Positions 54,188 through 61,586 of a stretch of 64,000 nucleotides of DNA are shown here, in pieces. The translations under genes and the position numbers were made by a program. This stretch comes from Fibrobacter succinogenes. Its GTDB lineage: Bacteria > Fibrobacterota > Fibrobacteria > Fibrobacterales > Fibrobacteraceae. Numbering within the stretch: the first letter of the stretch is position 1; each line of letters opens with the position of its first letter. The stretch spans positions 17,689 through 81,688 of the forward strand of contig CADCGB010000006.1 in assembly GCA_902800815.1 (NCBI GenBank), written 5' to 3'. The notes under the pieces were generated by a model. It was not told the origin of the DNA. It made no database searches and saw only the letters and a program-made list of their open reading frames with translations.

Positions 54188-54206
54188 TTTTACATAAAAT
54201 GTAAAA
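54188..54206. promoter_or_regulatory. Palindrome TTTACA-N5-TGTAAA, dapF site 1
   Basis: Perfect dyad TTTTACAT-AAA-ATGTAAAA centred on 54197. It lies 141 bp upstream of the -12 element of the dapF sigma-54 promoter and 31 bp (three helical turns) from site 2. Candidate enhancer (UAS) for the NifA-like activator. Confidence 0.7.
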
Positions 54207-54219
54207 GAAAACATCCTTA

Positions 54220-54236
54220 TTTACATATTATGTAAA
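54220..54236. promoter_or_regulatory. Palindrome TTTACA-N5-TGTAAA, dapF site 2
   Basis: Perfect 17-bp palindrome TTTACATA-T-TATGTAAA centred on 54228. It lies 110 bp upstream of the -12 element of the dapF promoter, nearly the same distance as the purF copy (108 bp). Confidence 0.7.
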
Positions 54237-54304
54237 ATATGGTAGTGGCATATTTTTCACTTATTTCCTAAAAATTTGGCGAATTTGATTAAAATTCGCC
54301 TTTT

Positions 54305-54321
54305 TTAACATAATTTGTAAA
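54305..54321. promoter_or_regulatory. Weak copy of the palindrome, dapF site 3
   Basis: TTAACA-TAATT-TGTAAA, one mismatch in the outer arms, centred on 54313. It ends 2 nt before the -24 element, so binding here would touch RNA polymerase; it could serve in feedback rather than activation. Confidence 0.45.
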
Positions 54322-54323
54322 AA

Positions 54324-54339
54324 TGGCACGTTCTTTGCA
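54324..54339 (+). promoter_or_regulatory. Sigma-54 promoter of dapF-dapL-nifA-like operon
   Basis: TGGCACG-N4-TTGCA matches the sigma-54 consensus at all fixed positions (-24 GG at 54325-54326, -12 GC at 54337-54338). The start of transcription should lie near 54350, giving a leader of about 25 nt. The dapF ATG follows AAAAGGACG. Confidence 0.85.
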
Positions 54340-54374
54340 TTATAGACACAAAATAAATGTAAAAGGACGTCTTT

Positions 54375-55241
54375 ATGGAATTTTCAAAGTGGACCGGGCT
54401 GGGCAACGACTTCGTGCTCCTGGAACCGGGTCAGAAGGTAGAGTTCGGACCCGCATTCGAGAGAGAGGTCGTTCGCCTCTGTGACCGCCGTTTTGGCGTA
54501 GGTGCCGATGGCGTGGTTATCGTGACCCCGATGGATGCCGAGGGTTGCCTGGTTATCGACAAGGCGGGTGTCGGTCCTGCATCGAAGTCCGCACCGAACG
54601 GTGTCGATTTCGAGATGCGCATTTTCAATGCCGACGGTTCGGAAGCGGCCATGTGCGGTAACGCTACCCGCTGCGTGGCGAAGTTCATCGTGAGCCGCGA
54701 ACTCGCCAAGCCGGGCCAGAAGGTTTTCAACCTGCACACCAGAAGCGGGCTCGTGAAGCCGGAACTCTTGGACGATGGCCGCGTGTGTGTGGACATGGGA
54801 AACCCGAGGGATTTTCTCGGTAGCATCAAGCTCACGGCGCACTGCTTTGACTTTACCGCGGAGACGGTCTCGATGGGGAACCCGCACGCGGTTATTTTCG
54901 TAGATGACATTAACAAGATTCAGTTGGAAGACTGGGGCCGCGTGCTCGAATGCGACAAGCAGTTCCCGGACCGCTGCAACATTGAATTCGCGCAGGTGCT
55001 GCCTGTAGCAGACGGGGCGCCCACCCAAATCCGCATGCGGGTTTGGGAACGGGGTTGCGGCGTCACCATGGCCTGTGGAACCGGGAGCTGCGCAACCCTC
55101 GTTGCGGCCCAGCGTACGGGCCGCGTGGGCGTAGAGGCCGACATCGTTCTCGATGGTGGCGTGCTCCATATCAAGCATGAAAACGATGGCCCGGTCCTCA
55201 TGACCGGCCCCGCACAGGAAGTATTTAAAGGGACAATCTAA
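54375..55241 (+). CDS. dapF: Diaminopimelate epimerase
   Basis: 288 residues. Both catalytic cysteines are in place: AAMCGNATRCV and TMACGTGSCATLVAA. The N-terminal FSKWTGLGNDFVL and FEMRIFNADGSEA segments are typical. The enzyme turns LL-diaminopimelate into the meso form for lysine and peptidoglycan. A sigma-54 promoter and two palindromic enhancer-like sites lie upstream. Its stop codon overlaps the dapL start by 1 nt (TAATG), so the two are coupled. Confidence 0.96.
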   Translation: MEFSKWTGLGNDFVLLEPGQKVEFGPAFEREVVRLCDRRFGVGADGVVIVTPMDAEGCLVIDKAGVGPASKSAPNGVDFEMRIFNADGSEAAMCGNATRCVAKFIVSRELAKPGQKVFNLHTRSGLVKPELLDDGRVCVDMGNPRDFLGSIKLTAHCFDFTAETVSMGNPHAVIFVDDINKIQLEDWGRVLECDKQFPDRCNIEFAQVLPVADGAPTQIRMRVWERGCGVTMACGTGSCATLVAAQRTGRVGVEADIVLDGGVLHIKHENDGPVLMTGPAQEVFKGTI

Positions 55242-56449
55242 TGAACGAGACAATCATCAATCCGAACTACGACTTGCTGCCTGGTAGTTACCTGTTTTCT
55301 ACCATCGCAAAGAAGATTTCCGAATACCAGGCAAAGAAGCCCGATGCCGACATCGTTCGCCTGGGTATCGGCGACGTGACCACGCCGCTTATCCCCGAGG
55401 TCATCAAGGCCATGCACAAGGCTGTCGACGAGATGGCCGAGAAGGGGACGTTCCGCGGGTACGGGCCCGAGCAGGGCTACGACTTTTTGCGCCAGGCGAT
55501 TGTCGCTGGCGAATACACCTCCCGCGGTATCGAGATGGACCCGGACGATATCTTCGTGAGTGACGGTTCCAAGTGCGACGTTGCGAACATCCAGGAACTT
55601 TTTACAGAAAATGTAAAAATTGCCATCCCTGACCCCGTCTATCCGGTCTATCTGGACTCCAACGTGATGGCTGGGCGTGCAGGCGTGTTGCAGAATGACG
55701 GACATTTTTCTAAGGTAACCTACCTTGCGTCGACCGCCGAGAACAACTTCCAGCCTGACCTGCCCAAGAACCCGGTGCACATGATCTACCTCTGCAGCCC
55801 GAACAACCCGACGGGTACGGTGCTCAGCCGCGAAACGCTCCAGAAGTTCGTGGACTACGCGAACGAGAACGGTGCGATTATCCTGTTCGATGGCGCCTAC
55901 AACTGCTACATTCAGGACGAGAGCCTCCCGCACTCCATCTTCGAGATTCCGGGTGCCCGCACCTGTGCCATCGAGTTCCGCAGCTTCAGCAAGACTGCTG
56001 GCTTTACCGGCGTGCGTTGCGCCTATACGGTTATTCCGCACGAACTTTCCAAACTCCGCTCCATGTGGAATCGCCGCCAATGCACCAAGTTCAACGGCGT
56101 AAGTTACGTGACCCAGCGTGCCGCCGAGGCTATCTACTCCCCGGTCGGCTGGCAGCAGACGAAGGCCGTTATCGCGGGCTACATGAAGACTGCCGGCGTC
56201 ATCCGCAAGGAACTGACCGCGGCTAGCTACACGGTGTTCGGCGGCGAGCATGCCCCGTACATCTGGTGGAAGATTCCTGATGGCGAAAAGTCCTTCGACT
56301 TCTTCGACCGGCTGCTTGCCACCTGCGAGGTCGTGGGCACCCCCGGTAGCGGCTTTGGTCCCTGCGGCGAAGGGTATTTCCGCCTGACCGCCTTCGGTGA
56401 CTACGAACGCACCTGCGAAGCCCTCAAGAGAGTTAAGGCTAAACTCTAA
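55241..56449 (+). CDS. dapL: LL-diaminopimelate aminotransferase
   Basis: 402 residues. The fold-type I PLP motifs are present: CSPNNPTGTVL, the FDGAYNCYI Asp/Tyr pair and the PLP lysine in FRSFSKTAGFTGVRCAY. The N-terminal RLGIGDVTTPLIPEV and FRGYGPEQGYDFLR stretches mark the DapL branch. The enzyme makes LL-diaminopimelate from tetrahydrodipicolinate in one step, replacing the DapD/DapC/DapE path, and the neighbouring dapF uses its product. A copy of the TTTACA-N5-TGTAAA palindrome lies inside the gene at 55601-55617. Confidence 0.96.
   Translation: MNETIINPNYDLLPGSYLFSTIAKKISEYQAKKPDADIVRLGIGDVTTPLIPEVIKAMHKAVDEMAEKGTFRGYGPEQGYDFLRQAIVAGEYTSRGIEMDPDDIFVSDGSKCDVANIQELFTENVKIAIPDPVYPVYLDSNVMAGRAGVLQNDGHFSKVTYLASTAENNFQPDLPKNPVHMIYLCSPNNPTGTVLSRETLQKFVDYANENGAIILFDGAYNCYIQDESLPHSIFEIPGARTCAIEFRSFSKTAGFTGVRCAYTVIPHELSKLRSMWNRRQCTKFNGVSYVTQRAAEAIYSPVGWQQTKAVIAGYMKTAGVIRKELTAASYTVFGGEHAPYIWWKIPDGEKSFDFFDRLLATCEVVGTPGSGFGPCGEGYFRLTAFGDYERTCEALKRVKAKL
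55601..55617. promoter_or_regulatory. Intragenic copy of the palindrome in dapL
   Basis: TTTACA-GAAAA-TGTAAA, perfect arms, inside the dapL reading frame where it encodes FTENVK. I find no sigma-54 promoter within the usual distance downstream. It may be a chance match or a site that affects the next gene. Confidence 0.4.
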
Positions 56450-61021: not shown

Positions 61022-61056
61022 TGTTAGTCCTTAAAGGTTTGCTGTTGAAGTTGGTG

Positions 61057-61398
61057 TTATCCGATTGCCTCGGGTCCGGTTTCTCCAGTACGGATGCGGA
61101 TGCACTGTTCGAGCGAGGTGACGAAAATCTTGCCGTCGCCGATGGCTCCTGTGCGAGCACCCTTGATGATGGCATCGATGCAGGGCTTCACGAAGTCATC
61201 GTTCACCGCAATCTTCAGGCAAATCTTCTTGAGCAAATTCACCTCGGTCACGACACCGCGGAAGCGCTGGTTGTAGCCCTTCTGCTGGCCGCAGCCGAGC
61301 ACGTTAGTGACAGACATCTTGTAAATCTGGTTCTCGTAGAGCGCTTGCTTCACGAGGTTAAGTCGTTCGGGTTGAATGTAGGCCGTAACGAGTTTCAT
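61057..61398 (-). CDS. glnB: PII nitrogen regulatory protein
   Basis: 113 residues from the ATG at 61398. The longer open frame starts before the sigma-54 transcription start, so it is not used. The sequence MKLVTAYIQPERLNLVKQAL and the B and C loops (TGAIGDGKIFVTSLEQCIRIRTGE) are typical. The T loop runs GQQKGYNQRFRGVVTEVNLL: position 51, where enteric PII has the uridylylated Tyr, is Thr, and position 46 is Phe. Tyr42 is the only Tyr in the loop. PII senses 2-oxoglutarate and ATP/ADP and blocks AmtB. It is cotranscribed with amtB. Confidence 0.94.
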   Translation of the reverse strand: MKLVTAYIQPERLNLVKQALYENQIYKMSVTNVLGCGQQKGYNQRFRGVVTEVNLLKKICLKIAVNDDFVKPCIDAIIKGARTGAIGDGKIFVTSLEQCIRIRTGETGPEAIG

Positions 61399-61449
61399 TG
61401 TATTTGTCCTTGCTAGATTCCAAGGAATTTTGGAATTCGTTCCCATCTA

Positions 61450-61465
61450 TGCAAAGAGCGTGCCA
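61450..61465 (-). promoter_or_regulatory. Sigma-54 promoter of glnB-amtB
   Basis: On the minus strand the sequence reads TGGCACG-N4-TTGCA, a full match to consensus. Predicted transcription start is near 61439, giving a leader of about 40 nt before the glnB ATG. Confidence 0.87.
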
Positions 61466-61510
61466 AAAATTTTGAGTGTGCAAATAAAGACGAAAAATGT
61501 CGAAAATAAA

Positions 61511-61540
61511 CGAAAAATCGCGGTTTGCTTAACCGCGATT
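61511..61540 (-). terminator. Terminator of the vWA lipoprotein gene
   Basis: AATCGCGGTT (61516-61525) pairs perfectly with AACCGCGATT (61531-61540) around TGCTT. On the minus strand TTTCG and T-rich sequence follow. It lies about 85 nt past the stop codon. Confidence 0.75.
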
Positions 61541-61554
61541 ACAATCTTTGTTTT
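61538..61554. promoter_or_regulatory. Degenerate palindrome, glnB distal pair (proximal)
   Basis: ATTACA-ATCTT-TGTTTT keeps ACA-N5-TGT but has mismatches in the outer arms. Centred on 61546, 95 bp from the -12 C of the glnB promoter. It partly overlaps the vWA terminator. It is 32 bp from the next degenerate copy, as sites 1 and 2 are at dapF (31 bp). Confidence 0.35.
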
Positions 61555-61569
61555 TCATTTTTTGAAATC

Positions 61570-61586
61570 TATGCAAGGAATGTAAA
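61570..61586. promoter_or_regulatory. Degenerate palindrome, glnB distal pair (distal)
   Basis: TATGCA-AGGAA-TGTAAA has one perfect arm and one with two mismatches. Centred on 61578, 127 bp from the -12 C of the glnB promoter. Confidence 0.4.

What the first reader, a model, noticed from the sequence alone, without database searches (positions are those of the whole stretch)
54188..61586. Candidate sigma-54 regulon with a new enhancer palindrome TTTACA-N5-TGTAAA
Seen in sequence: the exact 17-bp palindrome occurs upstream of dapF (twice, centres 31 bp apart) and upstream of purF, and degenerate forms (also two, 32 bp apart) lie upstream of glnB. In each case a sigma-54 promoter follows. The distance from palindrome centre to the -12 C is 110 bp at dapF and 108 bp at purF. 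Established: 6-N5-6 dyads at 100-150 bp are the geometry used by NtrC-type activators (TGCACC-N5-GGTGCA). Inference: the palindromes are binding sites for one enhancer-binding protein, most likely the NifA-like protein of the same region. The sequence differs from the NifA site TGT-N10-ACA and from NtrC.
Basis: partly seen in the sequence, partly recalled or inferred. Interest (0 to 1): 0.93.

Follow-up and report, generated by a model that had tools for sequence, protein, structure and literature searches.

The report
Fibrobacter nitrogen-regulator enhancer with autoregulatory brake
In the genomes of Fibrobacter and close relatives, a paired DNA palindrome (TTTACA-N5-TGTAAA) is conserved upstream of ammonia- and glutamine-using genes and is likely bound by the activator protein encoded next to it, which would make this a predicted master switch for nitrogen use, with what looks like a built-in brake on the activator's own operon, in bacteria for which our literature searches found no such switch described.

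Summary
The palindrome is real and far above chance. In 111 related genomes there are 306 exact copies against 56 controls.

In 60 of 61 dapF loci (window included) two copies lie 30-31 bp apart. A third, usually degenerate copy is fixed 25 bp (once 26) upstream of the sigma-54 -12 base.

gltB has pairs plus sigma-54 in 21 of 21; purF has dyad plus sigma-54 in 19 of 30; glnB has sigma-54 in 30 of 30 but a dyad at enhancer distance in 14; carA has dyads in 26 of 30 and no sigma-54.

The best candidate binder is the adjacent GAF/AAA+/Fis protein: it follows dapF-dapL in 60 of 60 fetched loci, copies track its presence, and the dyad recurs beside its relatives in two bins from another phylum. A shortened paralogue, often lacking GAFTGA, sits at a second glutamine synthetase behind the same half-sites with N4 spacing.

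Binding, regulation and the brake are inferred. New variant of a known kind (NtrC/NifA-type enhancer regulation).

The parts
54189..54205 (.). D1: enhancer dyad TTTACATAAAATGTAAA, distal copy
   Evidence: Exact match; pair found in 60 of 61 loci
54220..54236 (.). D2: enhancer dyad TTTACATATTATGTAAA, proximal copy, 31 bp from D1, 110 bp from the -12 C
54305..54321 (.). D3: degenerate dyad TTAACA-N5-TGTAAA, ending 2 bp before the -24 box, centre 25 bp upstream of the -12 C; inferred autoregulatory brake (governor-like) site
   Evidence: 59 of 60 at 25 bp, 1 at 26; only conserved block besides -24/-12
54324..54338 (+). sigma-54 promoter TGGCACGTTCTTTGC of dapF-dapL-EBP1
54375..55241 (+). dapF (diaminopimelate epimerase)
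   Evidence: TIGR00652
55241..56449 (+). dapL (LL-diaminopimelate aminotransferase)
   Evidence: TIGR03542
55601..55617 (.). Exact dyad inside dapL; kept within 1 mismatch in 39 of 57 sequences, the same 39 that encode F[T/S]ENV; role unknown
56473..58002 (+). EBP1: GAF + AAA+ (GAFTGA) + Fis-type HTH; predicted dyad-binding nitrogen regulator
   Evidence: Pfam; GAFTGA; NCBIfam nifA 460.5 bits, under its 528.85 cut-off; best PDB sequence match 9qq6 (NifA)
58046..59431 (-). purF (amidophosphoribosyltransferase)
   Evidence: TIGR01134
59435..59509 (-). Fibro-purF RNA, known cis-regulatory RNA in the purF leader
   Evidence: RF02974, 93.2 bits
59521..59535 (-). sigma-54 promoter TGGCACATTTTTTGC of purF
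59621..59637 (.). purF enhancer dyad, single copy here, 108 bp from the -12 C
59756..61021 (-). amtB (ammonium transporter)
   Evidence: PF00909
61057..61446 (-). glnB (PII); the true start is probably the inner ATG at 61398
   Evidence: PF00543; start inferred from the promoter position
61451..61465 (-). sigma-54 promoter TGGCACGCTCTTTGC of glnB-amtB
   Evidence: 30 of 30 orthologues within 1 mismatch
61538..61554 (.). Weak dyad (4 mismatches by hand count), 32 bp from the next
   Evidence: Hand count sequence
61570..61586 (.). Degenerate dyad (2 mismatches) upstream of glnB

Best explanation
The palindrome TTTACA-N5-TGTAAA is a conserved DNA element that is likely an enhancer bound by the GAF/AAA+/Fis-type activator EBP1 encoded at 56473-58002, which would drive sigma-54 transcription of ammonia- and glutamine-metabolism genes and of its own operon. 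Shown: copies, mostly paired 29-31 bp apart, with the proximal one about 85-150 bp upstream of -24/-12 promoters of dapF-dapL-EBP1, gltB, purF and (weaker) glnA(GSIII) and glnB-amtB, conserved across the genus. Inferred: when nitrogen is short the GAF domain (by analogy with NifA, sensing 2-oxoglutarate or PII) frees the AAA+ ring; dimers on D1 and D2 seed a hexamer that loops to sigma-54 polymerase and opens the promoter. Inferred: D3, a degraded dyad ending 2 bp before the -24 box of EBP1's own operon, is filled when EBP1 is abundant and shuts polymerase out, capping autoactivation as the NtrC governor sites are proposed to do at E. coli glnAp2. At carA and carB the same dyads sit by sigma-70-like promoters, where the direction of control is open.
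For: Exact copies: 6 against control 0 in the own genome, 306 against 56 in 111 genomes. Dinucleotide shuffles of the upstream regions (pairs counted anywhere in the 400-600 bp held): pairs in 60 of 61 dapF, 21 of 21 gltB, 12 of 30 purF, 7 of 30 glnB and 15 of 30 carA, against shuffle means of 0 to 0.25. dapF: pair spacing 31 bp in 55 and 30 bp in 5; D3 at 25 bp from the -12 C in 59 and 26 bp in 1; within -60..+13 of that base D3 and -24/-12 are the only conserved blocks and no sigma-70 -10 is seen. Own genome: of 22 exact sigma-54 sites, the 5 with dyads within 2 mismatches upstream are all nitrogen genes. Binder: dapF-dapL-EBP1 together in 60 of 60 fetched loci. Exact copies average 3.99 in 69 genomes with EBP1 and 0.74 in 42 without (controls 0.55 and 0.43), Mann-Whitney P 4e-16, uncorrected for relatedness. 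Seven genomes without matches to EBP1, dapL, purF, carA, gltD and amt but with EBP2 hold 4 copies in all (control 5). In another phylum: in L253 (66% identity) and L255 (59%) the only TTACA-N5-TGTAA matches within 1 mismatch in 19.5 and 14.8 kb lie 80, 95 and 126 bp upstream of the EBP gene, against 0.05-0.1 in block shuffles; their recognition helix reads SPRMM(N/S)YR, as in EBP1. Relatives of EBP1 sit in gltB-gltD-dapF-dapL-EBP in a Victivallis bin and beside amt-glnB-glnN in two Spirochaetota records. Governor precedent: PMC3870243, passages.
Against: No binding or expression data. carA shows dyads but no sigma-54 site within 2 mismatches in 30 loci. Three of the six exact copies in the own genome (dapL-internal, carA, carB) have no sigma-54 site nearby. 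The 8 one-mismatch own-genome sites examined outside the window have none either; 5 more were not examined. Among 30 first-listed hits, one per genome, 13 have a sigma-54-like site 15-260 bp away and 17 do not. glnB: dyads within 2 mismatches at 60-180 bp in only 14 of 30. purF: 11 of 30 have no sigma-54 promoter, 5 of these no dyad. One dapF locus (L139) lacks pair and promoter; there gltD lies just upstream in the same direction. Other relatives (L252, L254, L256, L257, L281) show no N5 dyad in the DNA held, L254 despite a like recognition helix. The genome has 7 other proteins with strong PF00158 matches. Whether G000 encodes RpoN was not searched. Co-occurrence is confounded by phylogeny and incomplete assemblies.
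Confidence: 0.8

Rival explanations
1. Another protein binds the N5 dyads: another EBP of the genome (for example the response-regulator type at C25) or a non-EBP dimer; EBP1 is only a member of the regulon.
For: Eight strong PF00158 proteins in the genome; of the seven scanned with Pfam one has a receiver domain (the eighth, L337, was not scanned). carA/carB have dyads at sigma-70-like promoters.
Against: Dyads precede sigma-54 promoters, which need an EBP; EBP1 is the neighbour in 60 of 60 fetched loci; the same dyad recurs beside its relatives in two bins of another phylum; copies track EBP1 presence.
Confidence: 0.12
2. EBP2, the shortened paralogue at the second glutamine synthetase, binds both N4 and N5 dyads and acts as competitor or repressor; EBP1 and EBP2 share sites.
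For: Similar HTH; same half-site; N4 pairs 28-29 bp apart in 40 of 41 EBP2 loci; GAFTGA replaced by GAFLGA or GAFIGA in 22 of 30 loci read.
Against: Seven genomes with EBP2 but no EBP1 match hold N5 copies only at control level, so EBP2 alone does not seem to maintain N5 dyads. This does not exclude cross-binding.
Confidence: 0.2
3. D3 is not a brake but a -35-like part of an overlapping sigma-70 promoter, or a site where EBP1 helps polymerase bind.
For: Its usual left half TTAACA resembles TTGACA; its position overlaps the expected polymerase footprint.
Against: No conserved -10 element follows; the right half TGTAAA is invariant in 60 of 60 while the left half drifts. The positive-role version is not excluded.
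Confidence: 0.3
4. The dyads are chance AT-rich palindromes or terminator remnants.
For: Intergenic DNA here is AT-rich.
Against: Dinucleotide shuffles give 0-0.25 pairs per set against 7-60 observed; the arms are near invariant while the spacer varies.
Confidence: 0.01

Closest known systems
NtrC and its enhancer sites at E. coli glnALG (glnAp2)
   Different: Arms TTTACA/TGTAAA, not TGCACC/GGTGCA; the regulator has a GAF domain and no receiver domain; its operon is dapF-dapL-EBP1; D3 sits right next to the -24 box.
NifA
   Same: Best NCBIfam model (TIGR01817) and best PDB sequence match (9qq6, E 3e-101); GAF-AAA+-Fis layout.
   Different: Scores 460.5, below the curated 528.85 cut-off; neighbours are nitrogen-assimilation genes; the recalled NifA site TGT-N10-ACA has the opposite half-site order.
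DVU1949, predicted single-component nitrogen EBP of Desulfovibrio vulgaris
   Same: Single-component EBP with a nine-operon nitrogen regulon, proposed autoregulated (PMC4641369, section 5 and passages).
   Different: Its motif was not in the text I saw and its protein was not compared here; homology to EBP1 is untested.
TyrR / GcsR
   Same: EBP-class regulators whose half-site is TGTAAA/TGTAAC; TyrR site TGTAAA-N6-TTTACA (PMC4894688, passages).
   Different: The half-sites face the other way, with N6 (TyrR) or N4 between 7-bp arms (GcsR); GcsR responds to glycine, other TyrR regulators to aromatic amino acids (same passages).
Fibro-purF RNA (RF02974)
   Same: Present in full between the purF sigma-54 promoter and the start codon.
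   Different: An RNA element, separate from the enhancer described here.

Membership tests
sigma-54-dependent EBP | AAA+ sigma-54 interaction domain with GAFTGA and a Fis-type HTH | tested here: met
   PF00158 237.8 bits, HTH_8 32.4 bits; GAFTGA present in EBP1
NifA (TIGR01817 equivalog) | Score at or above the curated cut-off | tested here: not met
   460.5 against 528.85 bits
NifA | TGT-N10-ACA upstream activating sites | tested here: not met
   The conserved dyad is TTTACA-N5-TGTAAA; the NifA consensus is recalled
NtrC | N-terminal receiver domain | tested here: not met
   GAF domain instead
NtrC | Site TGCACC-N5-GGTGCA | tested here: not met
   Same geometry, different letters; NtrC consensus recalled
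NtrC-type enhancer architecture (works like) | Two dyads about three helical turns apart, roughly 100-150 bp upstream of -24/-12 | tested here: met
   30-31 bp apart; proximal site 96-122 bp from the -12 C at dapF
NtrC-type governor (works like) | Extra weaker site nearer the promoter of the regulator's own operon | tested here: met
   D3 in 60 of 60 dapF promoters that have the pair. Within 2 mismatches nothing at 18-32 bp in 19 purF, 30 glnB or 4 glnA promoters; one of 21 gltB has a dyad at 35 bp; a 3-mismatch match lies 17 bp upstream of the own glnA -12 base. That D3 represses is untested
Binding of EBP1 to the dyads | Direct binding | not testable with these tools
   Needs footprinting, EMSA or DAP-seq
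DVU1949-type nitrogen EBP | Orthology to DVU1949 and same motif | not tested
   Protein and motif not seen
Fibro-purF RNA | Rfam gathering score | tested here: met
   93.2 against 60 bits

The most novel reading that the evidence does not exclude
Fibrobacter runs two paralogous nitrogen regulators that read the same TTTACA half-site and are told apart by spacing alone. EBP1 takes N5 dyads 30-31 bp apart and fires sigma-54 promoters. EBP2, which has lost the GAF domain and in many lineages GAFTGA, takes N4 dyads 28-29 bp apart at a sigma-70-type promoter region shared with a second glutamine synthetase: an activator family caught turning into a sigma-54-independent repressor by one-base shifts in its operators. 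EBP1's own operon carries an operator locked 25 bp from the -12 base as a hard-wired brake on autoactivation.
Probability: 0.5. Interest if true: 0.82.

Novelty: new variant of a known kind. Interest (0 to 1): 0.7.

Why it matters
Fibrobacter degrades cellulose in herbivore guts, and my searches of an open-access library listed no paper whose title or abstract start describes its nitrogen regulon or this motif. The predicted regulon joins ammonia uptake (amtB), PII, glutamine and glutamate synthesis (glnN, gltBD) with glutamine or glutamate users (purF, carA, carB, dapL, and nadE in the gltBD cluster) behind one readable site. The N4/N5 paralogue pair and the fixed D3 operator give a natural test of how EBPs gain new operators, lose sigma-54 contact and limit autoactivation.

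Tried and rejected
Helical phasing of the D2 to -12 distance: of 60 dapF promoters 34 have 96-100 bp, 24 have 106-110, two others 117 and 122, none 101-105; but the vector strength over distinct values was only about 0.57 near 10.5 bp, so this is left as suggestive.

A sigma-54 promoter for EBP1 itself: within 400 bp upstream in 1 of 60 loci; rejected. A sigma-54 promoter at carA: none within 2 mismatches in 30. D3 as sigma-70 -35: no conserved -10. Rfam family for the carA/carB leader: the two matches at E up to 1 are far below their gathering scores.

The dapL-internal site is not specially conserved over all 57 codon-aligned sequences (rank 156 of 396 windows). Among the 39 sequences within 1 mismatch of the motif it covers the two most conserved of 397 windows at third positions. 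That subset was picked by the motif, so the rank is partly circular; but it is also exactly the set that encodes F[T/S]ENV (39 by amino acids), so every sequence with those residues keeps the motif codons.

One search sampled one first-listed hit per genome (30 loci): 13 have a sigma-54-like site 15-260 bp away, 17 do not; these 17 include some dapL-internal and carA/purF-region hits as well as hits I did not classify. (pattern WTTACA-N4-TGTAAA, 111 genomes) was run; its listing is cut and I took no count from it. Faulty scripts: one search stopped with an index error after 16 of 22 loci (the other 6 done); one search read the wrong strand for L337, which I then left out of the Pfam scan. The plasmid search for EBP1 gave only hits under 60% identity and was not used.

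
Full report
OBSERVATION. The window holds four exact copies of TTTACA-N5-TGTAAA (54189, 54220, 55601, 59621), one with 1 mismatch (54305) and two with 2 mismatches. The 7 matches compare with 1.13 expected, and no shuffle of 100 reaches 7. Three exact -24/-12 sites lie upstream of dapF, purF and glnB. Pfam and NCBIfam identify dapF, dapL, a GAF/sigma-54 activator/HTH_8 protein (called EBP1 here), purF, amtB and P-II. 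It missed the exact copy inside dapL and did not mention the copy abutting the dapF promoter.

GENOME-WIDE. The own genome (3.15 Mb, 64 contigs) has 6 exact copies and no reversed-pattern control; at up to 1 mismatch 20 against 9. The two outside the window precede carA (L005, L068; CPSase small chain) and carB (L006; the N-terminus is printed, the name recalled from its sequence). Of 22 exact sigma-54 sites (reversed control 6), five have dyads within 2 mismatches in the preceding 300 bp: dapF, purF, glnB and the divergent glnA(GSIII)/gltB pair on contig 44. The other 17 have none. Eight own-genome one-mismatch sites outside the window were examined and none has a sigma-54 site nearby; five more were not examined. 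In 111 family genomes: 306 copies against 56 controls. Of 30 first-listed hits, one per genome, 13 have a sigma-54-like site 15-260 bp away.

CONSERVATION. I fetched one dapL locus from 60 of the other 71 genomes with a dapL match. dapF, dapL and EBP1 are together in all 60. With the window that makes 61 loci; 60 have the pair, D3 and sigma-54, and L139 has neither pair nor promoter. L139 is genome G015, where gltD lies just upstream of dapF in the same direction. Pair spacing is 31 bp in 55 and 30 in 5. D3 to -12 C is 25 bp in 59 and 26 in 1; D3 is usually off by one letter, and exact in L136. The distance from D2 to the -12 C falls in 96-100 bp (34), 106-110 (24), 117 and 122. In -60..+13 around the -12 base D3 and the -24/-12 letters are the only conserved blocks; a few single letters reach 70%.

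For gltB, 20 loci of the other 76 genomes with a gltD match, plus the own one: exact sigma-54 in 21 of 21, and a pair 29-31 bp apart (up to 3 mismatches each) in 21 of 21. purF: 30 of 96 genomes, the best matches, own included; sigma-54 in 19, all 19 with a dyad 60-180 bp upstream; 11 without sigma-54, of which 5 without a dyad. glnB: 30 of 81 genomes with an amt match, own included; sigma-54 in 30, a dyad within 2 mismatches at 60-180 bp in 14 (20 if counted anywhere in 420 bp). carA: 30 of 73 genomes, own included; dyads in 26, sigma-54 in none. Dinucleotide shuffles of the same upstream regions give 0 to 0.25 pairs per set against 60, 21, 12, 7 and 15.

WHO BINDS. EBP1 is the constant neighbour. 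Copies average 3.99 in 69 genomes with EBP1 and 0.74 in 42 without; controls are 0.55 and 0.43 (not corrected for relatedness, and some genomes are incomplete). Seven genomes of the genus (G040, G043-G046, G066, G074) show no match at the thresholds used for dapL, purF, carA, gltD, amt or EBP1, yet match EBP2; their exact copies (4) do not exceed their controls (5). G046 is listed as 99% complete.

Outside the family, EBP1 relatives of 45-70% identity lie in nitrogen clusters. A Victivallis bin has gltB-gltD-dapF-dapL-EBP, two Spirochaetota records (L262, L263) have EBP with amt-glnB-glnN, and a Desulfovibrionaceae bin has EBP with glnN-gltB-dapF-dapL. In L253 (labelled Verrucomicrobia) and L255 (labelled Lentisphaerae) the only TTACA-N5-TGTAA matches (up to 1 mismatch) lie just upstream of the EBP gene, against 0.05-0.1 in block shuffles; in L255 the two are 31 bp apart between divergent sigma-54 sites. 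L252, L254, L256, L257 and L281 show none. The recognition helix is alike in Fibrobacter, L253, L255 and also L254, which lacks the dyad in the DNA held; it differs in Spirochaetota and Deltaproteobacteria. In those the few dyads near the gene that I found have N4 spacing (for example ATTACATTTTTGTAAT in L259).

THE PARALOGUE. Contig 33 encodes EBP2 (351 aa): sigma-54 activator domain, lid and HTH_8 but no GAF hit, with GAFLGA in place of GAFTGA. In the 41 EBP2 loci examined (30 best plus 11 fetched) it diverges from a second GSIII gene in 40. In the same 40 the upstream region has TTTACA-N4-TGTAAA-like pairs (up to 2 mismatches each) 29 bp apart (38) or 28 (2). One of them, L370, has a sigma-54-like match (1 mismatch); the others have none. 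One locus (L353) is cut by a contig end. In the 30 read, 10 have GAFLGA, 12 GAFIGA and 8 GAFTGA. Substitutions in GAFTGA may interfere with sigma-54 binding (PMC4641369, section 5; TyrR and Rhodobacter capsulatus NtrC as sigma-70 regulators are recalled). EBP2 as a repressor of its own promoter is my inference from dyads lying, by eye, around a -10-like sequence.

MECHANISM. Paired dyads three helical turns apart about 100 bp upstream of -24/-12 are the classical seed for an EBP hexamer that loops to the closed complex (established for NtrC; recalled). The GAF domain and the presence of glnB in the regulon suggest 2-oxoglutarate or PII as signal, by analogy with NifA. D3 ends 2 bp before the -24 box, where a bound dimer should collide with polymerase. 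Its left arm has drifted, and among the promoters examined a dyad at this place was seen only at EBP1's own operon. [quoted passage not shown] I therefore read D3 as a brake. carA has the dyads but a promoter that looks sigma-70-like (TGCTAGTTT before a conserved leader, by eye), so the direction of control there is open.

NOVELTY. Searches listed no paper that by title and abstract start describes this motif or a Fibrobacter nitrogen regulon; passages only were read of five papers, one section of one of them in full. The S85 genome paper keeps its nitrogen text in a supplement that I could not read.

Noticed in passing
L338/L344 (G000:C33:19707-20759, minus): EBP2: 351-aa paralogue without GAF and with GAFLGA, divergent from a second GSIII glutamine synthetase, behind TTTACA-N4-TGTAAA pairs 29 bp apart.
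   Followed up: yes
55601-55617: Exact enhancer dyad inside dapL, kept within 1 mismatch in all 39 of 57 sequences that encode F[T/S]ENV there; no promoter near it explains it.
   Followed up: partly
L005 about 1630-1735 and L006 about 195-290: carA and carB share a conserved leader (hairpin GGTTCCGAT...ATCGGAA and a GTTGC...GCAAC stem, by eye) after a sigma-70-like promoter; no Rfam family matched well, a possible unnamed cis-regulatory RNA.
   Followed up: partly
59435-59509 (minus): Fibro-purF RNA (RF02974), so purF has both a sigma-54 enhancer region and an RNA element.
   Followed up: partly
L144/L175 and similar genomes: purF and carA are divergent neighbours in several relatives and appear to share one dyad pair, with sigma-54 on the purF side only.
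   Followed up: partly
L017 (G000:C4:64908-64922): Exact sigma-54-like site 39 bp upstream of an ORF that looks like a sigma-70-family factor (recognised by eye), without dyads within 2 mismatches.
   Followed up: no
L015 1501-1517: One-mismatch dyad upstream of a gene that looks like dapB (recognised by eye), perhaps another DAP-pathway target.
   Followed up: no
G040, G043-G046, G066, G074: Genomes of the same genus without matches to dapL, purF, carA, gltD, amt and EBP1 at the thresholds used; G046 is listed as 99% complete. They may have lost nitrogen assimilation as a block.
   Followed up: partly
L374-L378: Another genus (g6) has gltB-gltD-EBP (46-47% identity) with N4-type half-sites about 30 bp apart upstream of gltB (by eye; a match within 1 mismatch in 3 of 5, shuffles 0.3-0.7) and no sigma-54 site within 1 mismatch upstream of gltB.
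   Followed up: partly
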